From: Porphyra umbilicalis
Taxonomy: Eukaryota > Rhodophyta > Bangiophyceae > Bangiales > Bangiaceae
NCBI GenBank assembly: GCA_002049455.2
Contig: KV919023.1
Span: forward strand, 49,878-113,877
Direction: 5' to 3'
DNA length: 64,000 bases
The notes below the pieces were generated by a model. It was not told the DNA's origin and did not search any database. It saw nothing but the letters and a program-made list of their open reading frames with translations. The translations under genes were made by a program, and so were the position numbers. This document shows, one piece after another, positions 47,701 through 55,262 of this stretch (positions within the stretch are counted from its first letter, which is position 1; every line of letters begins with the position of its first letter).

Positions 47701-47860
47701 TCGTCCTGTTGTCGGCTAGTTGTGCGCCTGGACTGGTGCCAGTGTAATGAAAGGGATGGCCTTCTGACAGAGCTGACGCGACAAAAGCGGATTGATGGTA
47801 CAGTGTTTGGTCCCCGGCCGGGGGCCCATGCCGACAGAGCGGTGGGACTTGCGTGTGTTC
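44768..47860. other. Gene-poor region upstream of the DIRS-like element
   Basis: 45.2-46.5 kb is GC-rich with mirror-image frames and no domain. 46.7-47.8 kb is less GC-rich with short frames. The minus-strand GTAAGT at 44733 could mean that a 5' exon of the 41.7-44.8 kb gene lies here. No terminal repeats or RNA genes were recognised. Confidence 0.35.
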
Positions 47861-48458
47861 TGTATTTAACGTAGTTTTCGGTGTAACTGGCATGGCTGAT
47901 TATTTGTCAGCCGGCCGGACGCGGGCAACTGGCCAGGCGGAGGCGGCTGACGGAGGGGGGCGGCGCGACGCACGGTCGGGGGACCGAGCGGACGCGCGAG
48001 ACCGAGCGTGGGCGGTGCGTGGCCGCCAATGGGGGCGGCACGCGACGGCGACGCTCGGGCGGGCGTGGCGCCTCTTTGGGCACCACCGCCCGCGACCGCG
48101 GGCAACCACGGTTCTGACACGCAGCCGCGGCGACGGGCGGCGACGGGCGCGCGGCAATGACGCCCGCCCGCCGCGGCGCCTGCTGGCGGGCGCATCGGGC
48201 GCCACGCCCGCGCGCGCGCGCGCGCGTCGCGCGCCGCGCGCGCGGCGCAGCGCGCGCGCCGGCACCGGCCCCCCTCCCCCAACGGGCGCCCGGGGCGTGC
48301 TCCGGGCGCACGCGCAGAGACCCCTTGCGGCGGCGGGGTGCGGCTTGCCCTGCCGGCGGCGGCCGCGCCAGCGGCCGCAGCCGACTACTTGATGCCGCGC
48401 GGCGGCGACCACCCGCCGGCCTCTACCGGCCGGCAGCGTCCTCGTCTTCTCGCGGCCC
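47861..48458 (+). repeat. A1 split direct repeat (left terminus) of the PAT/DIRS element
   Basis: It starts TGTATTTAACGTAGTTTTCG and is repeated at 52927-53524, with CGCGACGC here versus CGTGACGC in A2 the only change seen. It contains a long alternating GC tract around 48209-48260 with Z-DNA potential and probably the promoter. Confidence 0.9.
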
Positions 48459-48557
48459 GCGCTCGCCGCTGACCGCTCGAAGCCGAGACCCCCCTCCCGG
48501 GCCCACTGCCCGTGGTTGACGTGACCCCGCCCCCCCCTCCCCTGTGTGGGCGGCACG

Positions 48558-49796
48558 ATGCCGGGGACGCCCCCCCCCCTACCGCTTGCCGGCGGGGACC
48601 CCGCAGCGCTTGACCCGGCCGCACTGCGCGTGCGCCTCGAAGAGACCGAGGCGCGCCTGTCGCAGACGCACGCCGAGTTGGCGACCGCCCGGCTTGCCAT
48701 TGCCGGGCACGATGCCGCCCAAGGCGCCGCCACAGCCGCGGCGGCTGCGCTCCACGACGGAGCGGGCGCAGCTGGCGGCCGCCGTACGGGCGGCGCAGCT
48801 CCTAGTGGGGCAAACGGGGTCACCCCCGCCGCCCCCGCTACCGGCATCACGGGCGGCGCCGGGGGCATCATCCCGGCGCCAACGGACGGCGGCACGACCG
48901 ACCGCCCCTACGTCCTCCCGGCCCCCGTCAATGGCGGCGGCCAGGACTACGGGCGCATCGGCGACGGCGAGGGCTCCGACAGCCCCGCCGACTGGCTTGC
49001 GCGCACCAACTCCGTCCACGCCGGCCGTGGCGCCACGCCGCGCCACTACCCGTACGTCGACGACGCGGCCGTCTACAACGACGGCTTCGACACCATCAAG
49101 GTGCCCGCCGCCGACGAATGGCTCCAGGCGTTCGCCGTCCCGCGCTCCATCCTCCGCGGCGATGGCATGCCCGTCCCCTTTGCGCCCGACGACAACGTCC
49201 ACTCGGCCACCTTCCCCAACGGCGGGCGAGACGAGGTCGAGGCCAGGCACTGGTACTGCATCTTGGCGTGGCTCCAGCACACCCACAACGAGGCCTTGGA
49301 CGGGCACCACGCCGTCGACCGCACGCCCGACGAGGACAAGCAGCTCGTCGAGTTCCTCCTTTGCGCCCTCAACCGCACCTACGCCATCGGCGTCTCGAGG
49401 TACGACTACCTCGCCTTGCGCCAGTCCGAGCCCGCCTTGGCGGAGGCGTTCGCCCACAGCGACGCTGTCCCGCGCAACACCCTCCGAGGTGACGGCGCCC
49501 GCCGGTACCTCTCCCGCGTCGTACGGCAAGAGACCCTCGCCTCCGCCAAGATTGGAGCCGCGGAGCGCGGCTTCTCGTACGGCTCCCGCACGACCGGTCG
49601 AGCCGGCGGCAGCACTGCCCCGGCAGGCGGCGGCCCGTCACGGGCCGGCGCTGGCAGGGGCGGCGGCAGCAGCAGCGGTCGAGGCGGGGGCGGGTCCGGC
49701 CACACCGGCGGTGGCGGACGAGGTGGCGGCGGCGGCGGCGGCGGCGGCCGCGGCCGAGGAGGGGGCCGAGGTGGGCGCGGCGGCGGCCGCGCCTAA
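48558..49796 (+). CDS. DIRS Gag-like protein
   Basis: ATG 48558 gives MPGTPPPLPLAGGDPAALDP and 412 residues to TAA 49796. Residues ~20-60 are a predicted coiled coil (LEETEARLSQTHAELATARL). The central ~230 residues form an acidic/aromatic domain (RHYPYVDDAAVYNDGFDTIK, WYCILAWLQHTHNEAL). The tail is Gly/Arg-rich (RGGG repeats) and could bind nucleic acid in place of a zinc knuckle. Position before RT and composition fit a capsid-like ORF; I do not see a named Pfam domain. Confidence 0.75.
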   Translation: MPGTPPPLPLAGGDPAALDPAALRVRLEETEARLSQTHAELATARLAIAGHDAAQGAATAAAAALHDGAGAAGGRRTGGAAPSGANGVTPAAPATGITGGAGGIIPAPTDGGTTDRPYVLPAPVNGGGQDYGRIGDGEGSDSPADWLARTNSVHAGRGATPRHYPYVDDAAVYNDGFDTIKVPAADEWLQAFAVPRSILRGDGMPVPFAPDDNVHSATFPNGGRDEVEARHWYCILAWLQHTHNEALDGHHAVDRTPDEDKQLVEFLLCALNRTYAIGVSRYDYLALRQSEPALAEAFAHSDAVPRNTLRGDGARRYLSRVVRQETLASAKIGAAERGFSYGSRTTGRAGGSTAPAGGGPSRAGAGRGGGSSSGRGGGGSGHTGGGGRGGGGGGGGGRGRGGGRGGRGGGRA

Positions 49797-49921
49797 ATTT
49801 CGACCCCGCGCCGGGTGGCCTAGCCTCGCTCCCGGCGCCCAACGGCCTAGAGGCAACAGCGCGGCGACACCGCACGCGCAAGCACCGACGGCGGCTGCCA
49901 CGGCCCAGACACACGCCAACG

Positions 49922-51868
49922 GTGCCGGTCTACGACGCCCTCCGCGCAGCGCTCCCCGAGTGGCGCGCGCTGGGCGCGTCGACCTGGGTGCTCGACACGA
50001 TCGAGCACGGCGTCAAGATCGACTGGGTGGACCGTCCCCCCTACTTCCGCTCCAAGGAGTACCCAATGGGGACGGACGACACGGCGTTCATGACGGGCGA
50101 GATTGCGCGCGGGCTACAGGAGGGCTACATCGAGGCAGTAACCTGCCCCCGCAAGATCGCCAACCTGGTCTGCATTTCGTCGGCCTTCGTCGCCCACACG
50201 GGCCACAAGCCACGCGCGGTCTACGATTTGAAGCACCCGAACGAATTTCAAGGGAACGCGGCCTGCAAGTACGAGACGCTGCAGGAGCTGTCCATGTCGC
50301 TGCGCCCCAACGACGCCCTCTTGTCGTGGGACATTCGAGACGCATACCACCACCTCCGCATCCGCCCCGCGGACCGCACGTACCTCGCGTTTCGGACGCT
50401 GGGGCGCGTGTTTGTGCCAATCACCATGCCCTTCGGGCTGCGGGTCGCCCCGCGCACCTGGACCAAGGTGTGCCGGCCCCTGGTGCAGGAGCTGCGGCGG
50501 CTGGGCTTCCGAATTATCGCGTACGTGGACGACTTTGGGGGAGCCCCCCCAGCGCCAGCTGGCGTACCGGCCACGCGGGCGCAGGCAGTGGCGGCCTTCG
50601 ACCTGGTGGCCAAGCTACTGGCGCGCCTCGGTCTTTACCTCCACCCCAGGAAGGGCACGCGCGACGGCCCAACGGTGATGCTACTCCTGGGGCACGTCAT
50701 CGACACGCGCGCCGGTATCTTCCGGCTCCCGACCGAGCGGGTGAGCAAGACCGCGGCTCTGGCGGCGGGCCTCGCCCGCTACGCCACCTCCCACGAGCGG
50801 TGGGTCAGCTTCAAGGCGCTCCGCCGTTTTTGCGGCACCGCCGTCTCCACCACCCTGTCGGTCCCCGCCGCGCGCCTCCACCTCCGCAGCCTGTTCAATG
50901 CTCTCCAGTTCCGCCACCCGCGGACCGGCGACGCCCGCCTGGGCAACCAGGCGGTCCAAGACCTGCGCTGGTGGGTAGACCTCGACACCAACTCCCTGGG
51001 CGGCCGGCCTATATGGCCGGGCGCGGCGACGGTGCAAATGGATACGGATGCGTCTGGCGTGGGCTGGGGTGCGGTGCTGGGCTGTTTACTGGAGGCCAGG
51101 GGCTTCCACGGGACGCTGAGGAGTGGGCTCCACATCAACGTCCTGGAGCTGGGCGCCATCACCCTGGCGCTTCGCTCCTTCCGCGCGGACATCCCCCCGG
51201 GCACCATCATCCGCCTCCGGACGGACTCAATGGTGGCGCTCGGCGTGCTCAACGCCCAGTCATCACGCTCCCTCGTCCTCATGGAGGAGTACCGAGCGCT
51301 GCACGCCCTCTGCGCGGAGATGGACGTGGAGCTGCGAGCCGAGCATCTCTCTTCGGCCCTGAACGAATGGGCCGATCGGCTCAGTCGGGAGAACGACTCT
51401 ACCGTCTGGACGCTCGCGGCCGCGTCCTTTACGAGATTGGACGCCCTGTTCGGGCCACACACGGTGGACCTATTCACCACCGAGCTCGACGCCCGATGCC
51501 CGAGGTTCTACACCCGATGGGCTGCGCCGGGCACCCTCGGCGTCAACGCCATGGCGCACCGCTGGACGGGGGAGAACGCCTGGGCGAACCCCCCCTTCCA
51601 CATGCTGGGCCCGGTCGTGCACAAGATCATCACCGAGGGCGCCACCGTCACGCTGATCGCACCCGCATGGCGCGCCCAGCCGTGGTGGCGCCGCGCCACG
51701 GAGGCGGCGACGGACTGGTGGCTCCTGCCCGTGACGGACGGCGTCGGCGCACAAGGTACGAGATCGGCGCCGGGGCAACGGCCGCACTGGCGAACTGCGG
51801 TGTTCCGCTTCGCGCCGGTGGAATGCGCAACGACGGCGAGCGATGGGACCACCTCTTCACTCGCCTAG
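49922..51868 (+). CDS. DIRS reverse transcriptase / RNase H / adenine-methyltransferase-like protein
   Basis: RT motifs include SWDIRDAYHHLRIRP and the catalytic IAYVDDFGG. RNase H carries its acidic residues in VQMDTDASGVGWG, NVLELGAI, LRTDSMVAL and NEWADRLSR. The C-terminal third (DLFTTELDARCPRFYTRW, NAWANPPFHM) is the Dam-like methyltransferase region of DIRS elements, here with an intact NPPF motif. The conserved N-terminus (STWVLDTIEHGVKIDW) lies upstream of the first ATG (50066). Synthesis probably depends on frameshifting from Gag or a non-AUG start; the frame is free of stops upstream. It overlaps the recombinase ORF by 46 bp. Confidence 0.9.
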   Translation: MPVYDALRAALPEWRALGASTWVLDTIEHGVKIDWVDRPPYFRSKEYPMGTDDTAFMTGEIARGLQEGYIEAVTCPRKIANLVCISSAFVAHTGHKPRAVYDLKHPNEFQGNAACKYETLQELSMSLRPNDALLSWDIRDAYHHLRIRPADRTYLAFRTLGRVFVPITMPFGLRVAPRTWTKVCRPLVQELRRLGFRIIAYVDDFGGAPPAPAGVPATRAQAVAAFDLVAKLLARLGLYLHPRKGTRDGPTVMLLLGHVIDTRAGIFRLPTERVSKTAALAAGLARYATSHERWVSFKALRRFCGTAVSTTLSVPAARLHLRSLFNALQFRHPRTGDARLGNQAVQDLRWWVDLDTNSLGGRPIWPGAATVQMDTDASGVGWGAVLGCLLEARGFHGTLRSGLHINVLELGAITLALRSFRADIPPGTIIRLRTDSMVALGVLNAQSSRSLVLMEEYRALHALCAEMDVELRAEHLSSALNEWADRLSRENDSTVWTLAAASFTRLDALFGPHTVDLFTTELDARCPRFYTRWAAPGTLGVNAMAHRWTGENAWANPPFHMLGPVVHKIITEGATVTLIAPAWRAQPWWRRATEAATDWWLLPVTDGVGAQGTRSAPGQRPHWRTAVFRFAPVECATTASDGTTSSLA

Positions 51869-52893
51869 TCGGCCCCACGGCCGCCGACACCCACGACCCG
51901 GCAGCGGTGACGGCGCTCCTGCGCCGCGGCTATCGGCCCAACACCGAGGCGTCGTACATGTCTAAGTACCGGGCATTTGCCCGCTACTGCAACGAGCACG
52001 GACGCGCGGCGCTCCCAGCCGACCCATCAACTGTCGTTGGATACGTGCTACACGAGCAGCACCGCGGGGCACTCGCACCGCCGTCGCTCGAGAAGTACAT
52101 CTCGGCCGTGGCGTCCATCCATCGCATAGCTGCGTACGAGGACCCCACCAAAAGCTTCCTGGTGCGTCTGGCGATCTACGGCTATCGCTCCTGGGCGCTC
52201 GAGGAGCGCGGTGGCGAGCTCGCGCTGCAACGCATGCCGCTACCCGCCGCCTTTATCCTCGGGGTCTGCGACGTGGGCCTGTCCACCCCCGACGCGCTCT
52301 TGCGCGTCCAGTGCGCGGGCCTGGTACTGGGGTTCCTCCTCTTCAACCGTCCCGGCGCCGCCGCCTGTATGCGGCACAAGGACGTGGCATTCACGCCGAA
52401 CGGCATGGAGCTCCAGATCGTCGACTTCAAGCTCGCCCTGCGCACTGGCCGCGAGAGGCACGCGTTCACCGTGCCTATCGACTGCAACCCCGACGTGCGC
52501 GACAGGCCCGCCGCACTGGTGCGGCTGGTCTGGGAGCAGCACCGCGCTGCCGGCCGGGGCACAGCGGCGTTGCTGTTTGCCGACCCCCACCTGCCACCGG
52601 AGGTCCGCCTGTTCAACCTCGCCGCCCGTGTCACCAACGTGTGGTTGCGCCGCCTGCTCGGACTGGTGCCTGTGCCTGTGACACTGGGCGGCATCTACCA
52701 AGGCCACTCATTGCGGAGCGGGGCGGCCACCGCGGCGTACTCCATTGGCGTCCCTCTTCCCATGGTGGCCGAGATGCTGGGCCACTCATCGATGGAGGTC
52801 ACCATGCGCTCCTACGTGAAGTCGCGGTTCCGGGCTACACCGGAGGCCCGGGAGGTGATGGGGAGGTTCCTCCCCTCACATCTCCGACTATGA
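51823..52893 (+). CDS. DIRS tyrosine recombinase
   Basis: ATG 51823 opens a 356-residue frame to TGA 52893. An N-terminal SAM-like region (YMSKYRAFARYCNEHG) precedes the catalytic core with Arg in AACMRHKDVAF, the H-x-x-R box in GHSLRSGAA, a second His in MLGHSSMEVTM and the Tyr in MRSYVKS. This R-H-R-(H)-Y set is that of phage-type integrases; in DIRS elements it inserts the circular cDNA. The stop immediately precedes B1. Confidence 0.9.
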   Translation: MRNDGERWDHLFTRLVGPTAADTHDPAAVTALLRRGYRPNTEASYMSKYRAFARYCNEHGRAALPADPSTVVGYVLHEQHRGALAPPSLEKYISAVASIHRIAAYEDPTKSFLVRLAIYGYRSWALEERGGELALQRMPLPAAFILGVCDVGLSTPDALLRVQCAGLVLGFLLFNRPGAAACMRHKDVAFTPNGMELQIVDFKLALRTGRERHAFTVPIDCNPDVRDRPAALVRLVWEQHRAAGRGTAALLFADPHLPPEVRLFNLAARVTNVWLRRLLGLVPVPVTLGGIYQGHSLRSGAATAAYSIGVPLPMVAEMLGHSSMEVTMRSYVKSRFRATPEAREVMGRFLPSHLRL

Positions 52894-52926
52894 TGGCGCA
52901 CTCCTTCTCGGCTACCTCACTGGTTA
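52894..52926 (+). repeat. B1 repeat of the PAT/DIRS element
   Basis: It starts TGGCGCACTCCTTCTCGGCT, ends GGTTA, and joins A2 directly. B1-A2 reproduces the junction expected if the two element ends were fused in a circle. Confidence 0.9.
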
Positions 52927-53524
52927 TGTATTTAACGTAGTTTTCGGTGTAACTGGCATGGCTGATTATTTGTCAGCCGGCCGGACGCGGGCAACTGGCC
53001 AGGCGGAGGCGGCTGACGGAGGGGGGCGGCGTGACGCACGGTCGGGGGACCGAGCGGACGCGCGAGACCGAGCGTGGGCGGTGCGTGGCCGCCAATGGGG
53101 GCGGCACGCGACGGCGACGCTCGGGCGGGCGTGGCGCCTCTTTGGGCACCACCGCCCGCGACCGCGGGCAACCACGGTTCTGACACGCAGCCGCGGCGAC
53201 GGGCGGCGACGGGCGCGCGGCAATGACGCCCGCCCGCCGCGGCGCCTGCTGGCGGGCGCATCGGGCGCCACGCCCGCGCGCGCGCGCGCGCGTCGCGCGC
53301 CGCGCGCGCGGCGCAGCGCGCGCGCCGGCACCGGCCCCCCTCCCCCAACGGGCGCCCGGGGCGTGCTCCGGGCGCACGCGCAGAGACCCCTTGCGGCGGC
53401 GGGGTGCGGCTTGCCCTGCCGGCGGCGGCCGCGCCAGCGGCCGCAGCCGACTACTTGATGCCGCGCGGCGGCGACCACCCGCCGGCCTCTACCGGCCGGC
53501 AGCGTCCTCGTCTTCTCGCGGCCC
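52927..53524 (+). repeat. A2 split direct repeat
   Basis: Second copy of A1, offset by 5066 bp. The divergence point after CTCGCGGCCC is the same in both copies. Confidence 0.9.
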
Positions 53525-53921
53525 CGCCCACCCCCCTGGGCACGCACGCACCGAGCGGTGCCCACTGTACATCATGTTCAACCCTCGGCCTGTACCTGCT
53601 GTTTGACTCTACCGCGGCCGCTCCGTTAGCGGCCACGTCCTGTACCTGTTACACACGCTGGTTGCACTTTATCCCCCCTCTCGGGTGGGGCGCGACCGCT
53701 TGTACTACCTGCTGCGTAACCGTGCCGAGGCGGTATGCGCCCATGTCTTCTGGCGGCTGGGCAGCACGCCGCATGCCGGCGCGCGTGACCCAGCTCGCAG
53801 CTCAATGCACTTGCTTCTTCTTCTTCTTGTCTTCCCGCAGGGCCGGCGAAAGCCGGTCAGCCAACCGCATCGGGGGGGTTGGCGTAGCCTGCATTGGGAA
53901 TTATTTAAAAATCACGTTTAT

Positions 53922-53954
53922 TGGCGCACTCCTTCTCGGCTACCTCACTGGTTA
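53922..53954 (+). repeat. B2 repeat (right terminus) of the PAT/DIRS element
   Basis: Identical to B1; host DNA (GCCACGAGCCCG) follows. Confidence 0.88.
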
Positions 53955-55262
53955 GCCACGAGCCCGCCAACGCGCAATACGAAACTATTAATACAGCAAT
54001 CGCATGTGTGACATGGGTCACATGGCCTTTCGTAGCCGCTGCGCCACTTCCGCCTTGACGACACGCATGGAAGGCTGTCCACAGTGGCAGCAGAGGTAGA
54101 TTGGCAACATAGCGCGTCTTCCAAGGTCCCTCGCGAAAAAATGAAACGGTGTCGCACGACCACCATGATAGGCTGAACAGGTGCACGGCGTGACGGCGTG
54201 CTGCTTTTCAGGCCATGGACTGCGGTTCTCGCTGGGGGGCCTGCCCGCACGACTCGGCCAACTCCGTCCCCCCCCAGCAGGCCACGGCGGCGGCAGAGGC
54301 GGCCACATCCGTCCGAAGTCCCACGCGACATGACCCCGCCTTCCTCCCGCCCCGCGTGGAGTTATCACAGCCGGCGCGAGCGGCATCGGCCCATCTGACG
54401 CGGCGCCCACGAAAGAGTCCGCCGGGTCGGATGTTCTGCGGGAGGGACGTGATGGGGGTGGCGCACTCGCCGCGCCGTGCCGCTCCCCCCGCCTGCCCGA
54501 TGCGAGCGGCCAACATGGCGGACGGGTCGAAGGGAGCACGGGCACCGTCCGTCAAGGCGATCGGTCGTGGAGCAGACGTCGCTGACAGTCGCGACGCGAG
54601 GGGGACGCGGCGCACGCGCGCCGCCGCCGCCGCCGCTGCCGCCGCTGCCGCCGTCGCCGCCGCCACGGCCACCGCCGCCGCCGCCACGGCCACCGCCGGT
54701 CTACGTTGGCGCAGGCGGCGCGTACCCCACTGCGTGGCAGTCACGGTGGGCCGCTCGGTCGGGTGCGCGGCCCCTTCCGGCACTCGCCGCGGCCGCGGGG
54801 CGGTGGCGGCGCGGCGGCCTCGCCGTCACGCTGCCGCGCGTCCGCTCTCCTCAGGCGCGGCGTGCGATTCCCACATGCCACGTCATTTGGCCAAGAAAGT
54901 GCCATGACGACTGAGTCAGTGTCAACTGCGATCAAAGATTGGTGACGGAAGATTCTCGTGGCGGGGCGCTTCGGTGGGTCCGGTGCCAGCCACCGGCAGG
55001 GGCTGGTAAGGAGCCAGGACGCGGCACGTGGGCCCCGGGCCCCGGGGGGGCGGGGTCCCCAGCTGCCCACATGCCGCGTCCTGCCCCACCAGGGCCCCTG
55101 ATCTGCCCGGTTGTTGCCGCGGACCAACGATCCGCTCGTGCAAGCGGGCGGCTGGGGCATGCAAGAAACCTTGATCGGCTTGCTCGCGGGGCCGCACGAG
55201 GCTGGGAGCGACGCTACCCCGCATGCACACGGGAGTTCGCGGGGCGCACGGTCGGTTCCGGG
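53955..55262. other. Region with one doubtful frame
   Basis: A plus-strand frame from ATG 54215 (MDCGSRWGACPHDSANSVPP) to 54907 has a non-repetitive first ~110 residues and then an Ala/Thr repeat with (GCC)n DNA. It has no domain and may be chance. Confidence 0.25.

What the first reader, a model, noticed from the sequence alone, without database searches (positions are those of the whole stretch)
47861..53954. Apparently intact PAT-type DIRS element with perfect split direct repeats
Seen: 598-bp A repeats with one difference, 33-bp identical B repeats, B1 fused to A2, and three stop-free ORFs with all RT, RNase H and tyrosine-recombinase residues. Known: PAT elements regenerate ends from a circle whose junction is B-A. 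Inference: young and possibly still mobile. About 400 bp of unique DNA lies between A2 and B2, which is more than a minimal A1-ORFs-B1A2-B2 layout needs and may mark a group variant.
Basis: partly seen in the sequence, partly recalled or inferred. Interest (0 to 1): 0.8.

Follow-up and report, generated by a model that had tools for sequence, protein, structure and literature searches.

The report
Intact algal retrotransposon with structured tail
A recently active jumping gene of a photosynthetic microbe copies itself through RNA, and the stretch of DNA near its end that looked superfluous carries a folded RNA shape that its relatives preserve, which may help show how this poorly understood class of jumping genes starts and finishes its copying.

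Summary
Window 47861-53954 is a complete 6094-bp tyrosine-recombinase retrotransposon, A1-ORFs-B1A2-U-B2. Two further full copies (C73, C34) have the same ends to the base, unrelated adjoining flanks and 99.5-99.7% pairwise identity. Changes that distinguish copies are shared by both A repeats of a copy, as expected if the pair is rebuilt from one template. By features it is a Toc-type PAT element (RT, Dam-like methyltransferase, same-strand recombinase, no zinc knuckle); no tree with named references was possible.

The 397 bp between A2 and B2 (U) is a group trait, not a peculiarity of this copy. Its end carries a three-way-junction RNA: 14 of 22 pairs have changes on both sides and 92.7% of cells pair, against at most 49.5% in slid controls. 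Rfam has no match. It ends 14-21 nt before B2 in 16 of 16 sequences measured. B2 starts TGGC in 18 of 18 tabulated rows; insertions follow GT in 6 of 6.

I propose that it marks the RNA 3' end or the start of first-strand synthesis; that is inference. The element is a known kind; the RNA element appears undescribed in the papers I could search.

The parts
47861..48458 (+). A1, left terminal repeat (598 bp)
48415..48434 (+). 7-bp hairpin near the 3' end of A1, followed by AGCGTCC and CTTCTCGCG; the motif recurs near the A2 ends of relatives
   Evidence: hairpin drawn by eye on the printed sequences
48558..49796 (+). ORF1, Gag-like by position, Gly/Arg-rich C-terminus, no CCHC zinc knuckle, no Pfam match
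49799..51868 (+). ORF2: reverse transcriptase, RNase H motifs, Dam-like methyltransferase; different frame from ORF1; no ATG before the RT region (49799 is the first codon after the ORF1 stop, not a shown start)
51823..52893 (+). ORF3: tyrosine recombinase, same strand, Cre-like N-terminal part, invariant R176, H295, R298, Y331
52894..52926 (+). B1, internal 33-bp repeat directly after the ORF3 stop codon
52927..53524 (+). A2, internal copy of A (1 difference from A1)
53525..53921 (+). U, unique 397 bp between A2 and B2
53832..53899 (+). Conserved three-way-junction RNA at the 3' end of U (model match)
53922..53954 (+). B2, right terminal repeat (33 bp, identical to B1), starts TGGC and ends GGTTA
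47857..47860 (+). GTTC, last four host bases before A1 (target-side counterpart of GTTA at the B end)

Best explanation
This is an intact, recently transposed Toc-type PAT (DIRS-order) retrotransposon. SHOWN: exact ends; split direct repeats; coding domains; three near-identical copies; homogenised A pairs; a GT before the left end in six of six insertions; a covarying three-way-junction RNA placed 14-21 nt before B2 in a family of relatives. INFERRED: transcription starts inside A1 and the RNA ends at or just inside B2; the Gag/RT complex recognises the three-way junction as the signal for RNA 3'-end formation or for starting first-strand cDNA there; B is the short end missing from, or incomplete in, the RNA, and A includes the promoter end missing at the other side; the internal B1A2 block is the template from which the B-A circle junction is rebuilt; the tyrosine recombinase then integrates the circle at a GT(T) target without duplicating target bases.
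For: Three full copies with the same ends and different flanks. Two A positions that distinguish the copies (285, 308) are changed in both A1 and A2 of a copy, while two single-repeat changes (A 106 in the window copy, A 373 in C34) are private. Domains. Three-way junction: 14 of 22 pairs doubly changed, 92.7% of cells paired versus at most 49.5% when slid; 16 distinct sequences, 90.9% versus at most 47.7%. G-U 30 cells against A-C 10 of 340, favouring RNA of the sense strand. The last 85-90 nt of U are 53-72% identical between families, counting gap columns, against 15-37% for the rest of U, in 13 of 15 pairs; the other two pairs are 70 against 51% and 96 against 66%. B2 starts TGGC in 18 of 18 tabulated rows and ends GGTTA, GGTA or GGGTA; an in-frame stop abuts B1 in 12 of 18. 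Left flanks GTTC, GTGC, GTTG, GTTC, GTAG, GTTC: GT in 6 of 6, GTT in 4 of 6.
Against: No transcript ends were available. The window copy has no perfect AATAAA, only an A/T-rich stretch before B2; AATAAA is seen in L051, L071 and L072. The function of the three-way junction is inferred from position alone. In the pair counts the number of further pair types does not exceed the shuffles (371 of 500 and 273 of 500 shuffles as high), although the other four measures do. 15 of 30 sources searched with the model, among them L061 and the more distant L063-L066 and L069-L077, have no match at E<=0.01; L063 and L065 fold into a similar shape with other sequence, L064 does not in its best fold. Energy z-scores of single sequences are mixed (-3.15 to +1.00). 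Without gap columns the contrast between the end of U and the rest is smaller (56-78% against 38-58% in the 13 pairs, and only 56 against 50% for window/L055). The 16 aligned sequences are related, not independent. No empty site or circle was seen.
Confidence: 0.6

Rival explanations
1. Ordinary PAT element whose 3' structure serves RNA export, stability, translation or Gag packaging rather than 3'-end formation or cDNA priming.
For: Structures in retroelement untranslated regions often do such jobs (recalled). The structure is in the sense RNA (G-U bias).
Against: Its placement 14-21 nt before B2 and the sharp TGGC start of B point to a job tied to the RNA end.
Confidence: 0.28
2. The structure is a self-cleaving ribozyme or a captured host RNA that trims the transcript before B2.
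For: Compact three-way junction with a conserved loop (GCNNTGRGGG) and linkers next to the element end.
Against: No Rfam family matches up to E 10; I recognised no known ribozyme core by eye.
Confidence: 0.06
3. The inverted sequences act as DNA (cruciform or recombinase accessory site) rather than RNA.
For: They lie beside the recombination end B2.
Against: G-U cells outnumber A-C cells 30 to 10; no U-like segment precedes A1, since U occurs once per copy.
Confidence: 0.04
4. The copies arose by segmental duplication of a dead element, not by transposition.
For: Some relatives (L055, L057, L058, L059) share right flanks over about 680 bp.
Against: The three copies studied here share no sequence next to the element (two short matches lie 2.7 and 6.6 kb away), two tested left flanks are unique, and their A pairs are homogenised per copy.
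Confidence: 0.02

Closest known systems
Toc (TOC3) PAT elements of algae
   Same: Split direct repeats, MT domain, recombinase not inverted, no zinc finger in Gag (features as listed in section 7 of PMC4157794)
   Different: Sequence relationship not tested (no named reference sequence to hand); the 3' three-way junction was not found described
Pat1-like elements (nematode and echinoderm forms)
   Same: Split direct repeats with MT domain. PMC4157794 says the two forms differ in placement of the internal repeat; that the echinoderm form has it downstream of the recombinase, as here, is my inference from the text
   Different: Pat1 Gag has a zinc finger; none here
Kangaroo of Volvox
   Same: PAT type, alga, no zinc finger (PMC4157794)
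   Different: Kangaroo has an inverted recombinase and internal repeats between MT and YR (PMC4157794)
Ngaro elements
   Same: A1-ORFs-B1A2B2 order, tyrosine recombinase (PMC8547959 passages)
   Different: Ngaro lacks the MT domain (PMC4157794); here MT is present and U separates A2 from B2
DIRS1-like elements
   Same: RT/RH/MT plus tyrosine recombinase, no target duplication, a short circular-junction motif used at integration (PMC3266345 passages)
   Different: DIRS1 has inverted terminal repeats and internal complementary regions; here direct split repeats

Membership tests
PAT superfamily (DIRS order) | Split direct repeats A1...B1A2...B2 | tested here: met
   three of three copies
PAT superfamily (DIRS order) | Methyltransferase (Dam-like) domain after RT/RNase H | tested here: met
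   PF05869 E 3.8e-9, above cut-off
PAT superfamily (DIRS order) | Tyrosine recombinase | tested here: met
PAT superfamily (DIRS order) | No target-site duplication | tested here: met
   the end of the left flank is not repeated at the start of the right flank, apart from a 2-bp TG at C34 that chance can give; no empty site available to confirm
PAT superfamily (DIRS order) | RT clusters with PAT/DIRS in a tree with named references | not tested
   no named PAT reference sequence available; hits carry no element names
Toc-type PAT | Recombinase on the same strand as RT | tested here: met
Toc-type PAT | No zinc finger in Gag | tested here: met
   no CCHC pattern, only 2 Cys in ORF1
Pat1-like | Zinc finger in Gag | tested here: not met
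Kangaroo | Inverted recombinase ORF | tested here: not met
   ORF3 on the + strand like ORF2
Ngaro | MT domain absent | tested here: not met
   MT present
DIRS1-like | Inverted terminal repeats | tested here: not met
   the first 30 bases do not match the reverse complement of the last 30; minus-strand matches between the first and last 700 bases are internal (query 175-523, mostly the CG-rich part of A)

The most novel reading that the evidence does not exclude
Toc-type PAT elements carry a dedicated 3' cis-acting RNA, a three-way junction at a short distance before the terminal B repeat, which sets where the genomic RNA ends or where first-strand cDNA starts. This would define B mechanistically as the segment beyond that point, and would be a structured initiation signal for a tyrosine-recombinase retrotransposon that my searches did not find described.
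Probability: 0.4. Interest if true: 0.75.

Novelty: new variant of a known kind. Interest (0 to 1): 0.55.

Why it matters
How DIRS-order elements prime cDNA and restore both ends is, to my knowledge (recalled), unsettled. A covarying RNA element close to the 3' terminal repeat gives a concrete handle on that question, and gives split direct repeats a possible functional boundary (TGGC at the B start, GGTTA at the B end). Three near-identical copies, eleven further full-length or nearly full-length recombinase relatives at 54-66% identity in the same genome and relatives in EukProt with transcript-assembly names make the group usable for tests. My literature searches (listings only, plus the passages and section named in the report) showed no paper describing a conserved RNA structure in these elements; most subscription papers are not held, so this is a weak negative.

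Tried and rejected
tRNA primer: B starts with TGG like a tRNA primer-binding site. Only TGGC and a following purine are common to the 18 tabulated B2, so one fixed tRNA is unlikely. tRNA genes of the genome were not examined (none in the window).

3' splice acceptor: the structure begins after a pyrimidine tract and CAG/TAG in many copies, but L051, L082 and L067 change the AG. P1b stays fully paired in L051 and L082 and 4 of 5 in L067, so pairing rather than the AG seems to be kept.

Insertion into inverted repeats: the left and right flanks of L051 and L052 contain inverted copies of each other. The three copies of this element show no left/right inverted match at E<=1e-5, though the right flank of C34 has a 136-bp palindrome of its own. 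Not pursued.

Empty site: left flanks of the window and C73 copies occur once each in the genome; no second haplotype. The C34 flank was not searched.

Viral contigs: no relative of the recombinase. Rfam: nothing at gathering cut-off for the window or up to E 10 for 53460-53960.

A1 of L053 and L063 was not found in the pieces fetched, so target sites come from 6 insertions only. A possible C-rich B / G-rich loop pseudoknot was considered by eye and dropped.

A first comparison of U between families began the window's stretch 66 bases too early, inside A2; it was redone with the right borders, whose figures I use.
Full report
What is there. The window lies in an 83.8-Mb, 665-contig genome. The genome has ten stretches matching the chlorophyll-binding family PF00504, so the host is taken to be a photosynthetic eukaryote; the species is not known to me. 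The element runs from 47861 to 53954. A1 (47861-48458) and A2 (52927-53524) are 598 bp and differ at one base. B1 (52894-52926) and B2 (53922-53954) are identical 33-mers. B1 starts right after the ORF3 stop codon and is fused to A2. Between A2 and B2 lie 397 unique bases, here called U.

Copies and age. A search with A gives 47 rows: six full-length A repeats, two in each of three places (C263, the window; C73; C34), and 41 shorter matches, all to the GC-rich part of A (the tool calls its counts lower bounds). A search with U plus B2 finds the same three places. All three copies start TGTATTT and end GGTTA, and differ in flank. Pairwise they differ by 17 to 28 substitutions plus at most one indel over about 6.1 kb (99.54-99.72%); ORF1, the ORF2 frame and ORF3 are free of stops in 3 of 3. 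Changed codons in ORF2 are mostly non-synonymous (2:10, 1:7, 1:5 synonymous to non-synonymous in the three pairs), as for unselected recent changes. A position 285 is C in both A repeats of C34, and A position 308 is T in both A repeats of C73, whereas A 106 (window) and A 373 (C34) are changed in one repeat only. The paired changes are what copying of both A repeats from one template predicts.

Coding content. ORF2 matches RVT_1 (E 8.7e-9) and Dam methyltransferase (E 3.8e-9); ORF3 matches Phage_integrase (E 1.6e-6) and its SAM-like N-terminal domain (E 1.1e-4). By sequence, the solved structures matched are Cre and its variants for ORF3 (best E 6.9e-7) and one RT/RNase H chain, 4ol8, for ORF2 (weak, E 0.0073; that it is from Ty3 is recalled). 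In an alignment of 13 recombinases R176, H295, R298 and Y331 are invariant. ORF1 has no Pfam match and no CCHC knuckle. ORF2 has no ATG before its RT region, and ORF3 overlaps ORF2 by 46 nt; how they are expressed is open.

Relatives. The recombinase finds 86 matching stretches in the genome: the three own copies, eleven others of full or nearly full length at 54-66% identity, and partial or more distant ones. Loci for 30 of the 86 rows were held. In the three families where A1 could be aligned to A2 throughout, A is 598 bp (here), 483 bp at 98.3% (L052) and 630 bp at 99.4% (L051), and U is 397, about 275 and about 362 bp. The unique stretch between A2 and B2 is therefore a group trait.

B repeats. 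Of 25 rows examined, I tabulated 18 with a clear B1/B2 pair and dropped seven (L054, L056, L060, L066, L069, L075, L076: truncated, diverged, or no pair recognised; L076 would be an exception to the rule below). In the 18, B2 starts TGGC in 18 and B1 in 15; B2 ends GGTTA in 13 and GGTA or GGGTA in 5; an in-frame stop codon abuts B1 in 12. One of the 18 rows (L050) is a copy of the present element, and several others are close relatives of each other. Beyond these ends B varies between families. In L063-L065 I set the end of B by comparing the three.

Three-way-junction RNA. The last 85-90 nt of U look alike between families whose remaining U aligns poorly. Over six sequences (15 pairs), identity with gap columns counted is 53-72% for the end of U and 15-37% for the rest in 13 pairs; the pairs L051/L060 (70 against 51) and L052/L053 (96 against 66) are closer throughout. 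Without gap columns the ranges are 56-78% against 38-58% for the 13 pairs and L051/L060, and window/L055 is only 56 against 50. BLAST finds no match between the rest-of-U stretches except L052/L053. Folding gives a closing stem P1, hairpins H1 and H2, and an unpaired (C/G)TAG linker; RNAalifold on the first alignment gave H1 and H2 only, and single-sequence folds gave P1. On a nine-sequence alignment with the structure named by me, 14 of 22 pairs have changes on both sides and 92.7% of cells are paired; with partners slid by 1-3 columns the figures are at most 4 pairs and 49.5%. Four of five measures exceed all 500 shuffles; the number of further pair types does not (371 of 500 as high). H2 is CCAACC/GGTTGG here, CCGGCA/TGCCGG in L051, CTAGTA/TACTAG in L055 and CTAACC/GGTTAG in L062. 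A covariance model (R1) was run over 30 held sources. At E<=0.01 it matches 15 of them: the three own copies, L051-L055, L057-L060 and L062, and L067/L068, which are one place on C531 outside the training set (64 bits). L054 (30 bits) and L059 were also outside the training set, L059 being identical there to L057. The other 15 (L056, L061, L063-L066, L069-L077) have none. A sequence pattern for the H2 loop and the 3' side of P1 has 19 matches in the genome against 2 for the reversed pattern. Five newly found places were read. In the four that are not near-copies of L055 (L080-L083) the 5' strands were not fixed by the pattern: P1b pairs 5/5 in all four, and H2 pairs 7/7, 4/7, 6/7 and 7/7. L080 and L083 lengthen H1 with extra complementary bases, so their H1 scores 2/6 and 4/6 in the model frame; L081 has a damaged H2. 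Over 16 distinct sequences 90.9% of cells are paired, against at most 47.7% slid; this alignment is fitted to the model and leans towards it. G-U cells (30) exceed A-C cells (10) among 340, as expected for sense RNA. Rfam holds no match up to E 10. In the L063-L065 group the same place can fold into a closing stem with two main hairpins of other sequence in L063 and L065, not in the best fold of L064; this is a lead only. From the end of P1 to the B2 start there are 14 to 21 nt in the 16 sequences measured (the two own copies measured are 21, the relatives 14-17; L054, L061 and L080 were not measured).

Target site. The four host bases before A1 are GTTC (window), GTGC (C73), GTTG (C34), GTTC (L051), GTAG (L052) and GTTC (L055), against GTTA at the end of B. 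GT is kept in 6 of 6 measured; two other attempts (L053, L063) did not find A1. DIRS1 is described as recombining at a 3-bp junction shared with the target without duplication (PMC3266345, passages). The present data fit that kind of integration, with the bases left of A1 from the target and GTTA at the right from the element.

A B-A junction outside the canonical place. At C22 (L056) the recombinase stop is followed by B, then A, then 5' untranslated sequence and a gag reading frame (41% identical to ORF1 over 295 positions), with no U: a head-to-tail arrangement of the A-ORFs-B unit. One of 25 rows shows gag within the 1.5 kb held after the recombinase. Either a circle-derived tandem or unequal exchange between A1 and A2 would give it; I cannot tell which.

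How it most likely works. Transcription probably starts in A1 and ends near the start of B2. The split repeats then supply, from the internal B1A2 block, both the B end and the upstream part of A that the RNA lacks, giving a circle with a B-A junction that the recombinase inserts at GT(T). This scheme follows published reasoning for split-direct-repeat elements that I recall; of papers I saw PMC4157794 (section 7 and passages) and passages of PMC3266345, PMC8547959, PMC6681497 and PMC2685390, which describe the repeats and, for DIRS1, the circle. What this work adds is the conserved RNA structure placed a short distance before B2, and the sharp TGGC start of B. I infer that this structure tells the machinery where the RNA ends or where first-strand synthesis begins. 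No transcript data were available, the window copy has no perfect AATAAA, and other roles (packaging, export) remain possible.

Novelty. The element itself is a new member of the PAT group, Toc-type by its listed features; a tree with named references could not be made. The 3' RNA element is the part I did not find described (searches, listings only apart from the papers named). Relatives are many: 55 recombinase rows (the first being the window's own) and 113 ORF2 rows, both from the best-scoring of about 8000 candidates. Nearly all carry the source labels lgn, jgi or ena, which I take to be mostly metagenomes or read assemblies; five ORF2 rows carry the label eukprot, two of them with transcript-assembly names (P0074, P0107), which suggests that relatives are expressed.

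Noticed in passing
G000:C201:73152-78214: Five fragments of a recombinase C-terminal domain (query residues 257-352), each in a 138-aa open frame without stops, spaced 1191-1192 bp apart: a tandem array carrying the C-terminal part of a tyrosine recombinase.
   Followed up: no
L056 (G000:C22, downstream of the YR at 69011-70078, minus strand): Recombinase stop, B, A and then a gag frame without U: head-to-tail B-A junction.
   Followed up: partly
L055, L057, L058, L059, L084 right flanks: Related copies on different contigs share the same right flank (about 680 bp at 93-99% for the first four, with a 115-bp tandem duplication in L058; L084 was read for about 50 bases), suggesting insertion into a repeat or later duplication.
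   Followed up: partly
L051 and L052 flanks: Left and right flanks contain inverted copies of each other (175 bp at 97% and 389 bp at 85%).
   Followed up: no
window 49790-50066: ORF2 frame has no ATG before the conserved RT region; ORF1 ends in TAAATTTC and the LNFD reading across it is matched in a EukProt protein (P0074), hinting at a non-standard start or frameshift.
   Followed up: partly
window 48415-48458 and 53481-53524: The A repeats end with a hairpin plus AGCGTYC and CTTCTCGCG; the hairpin arms vary compensatorily by eye between families.
   Followed up: partly
G000:C576:685 and 8729: Two matches to the three-way-junction pattern in opposite orientation about 8 kb apart on one contig.
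   Followed up: no
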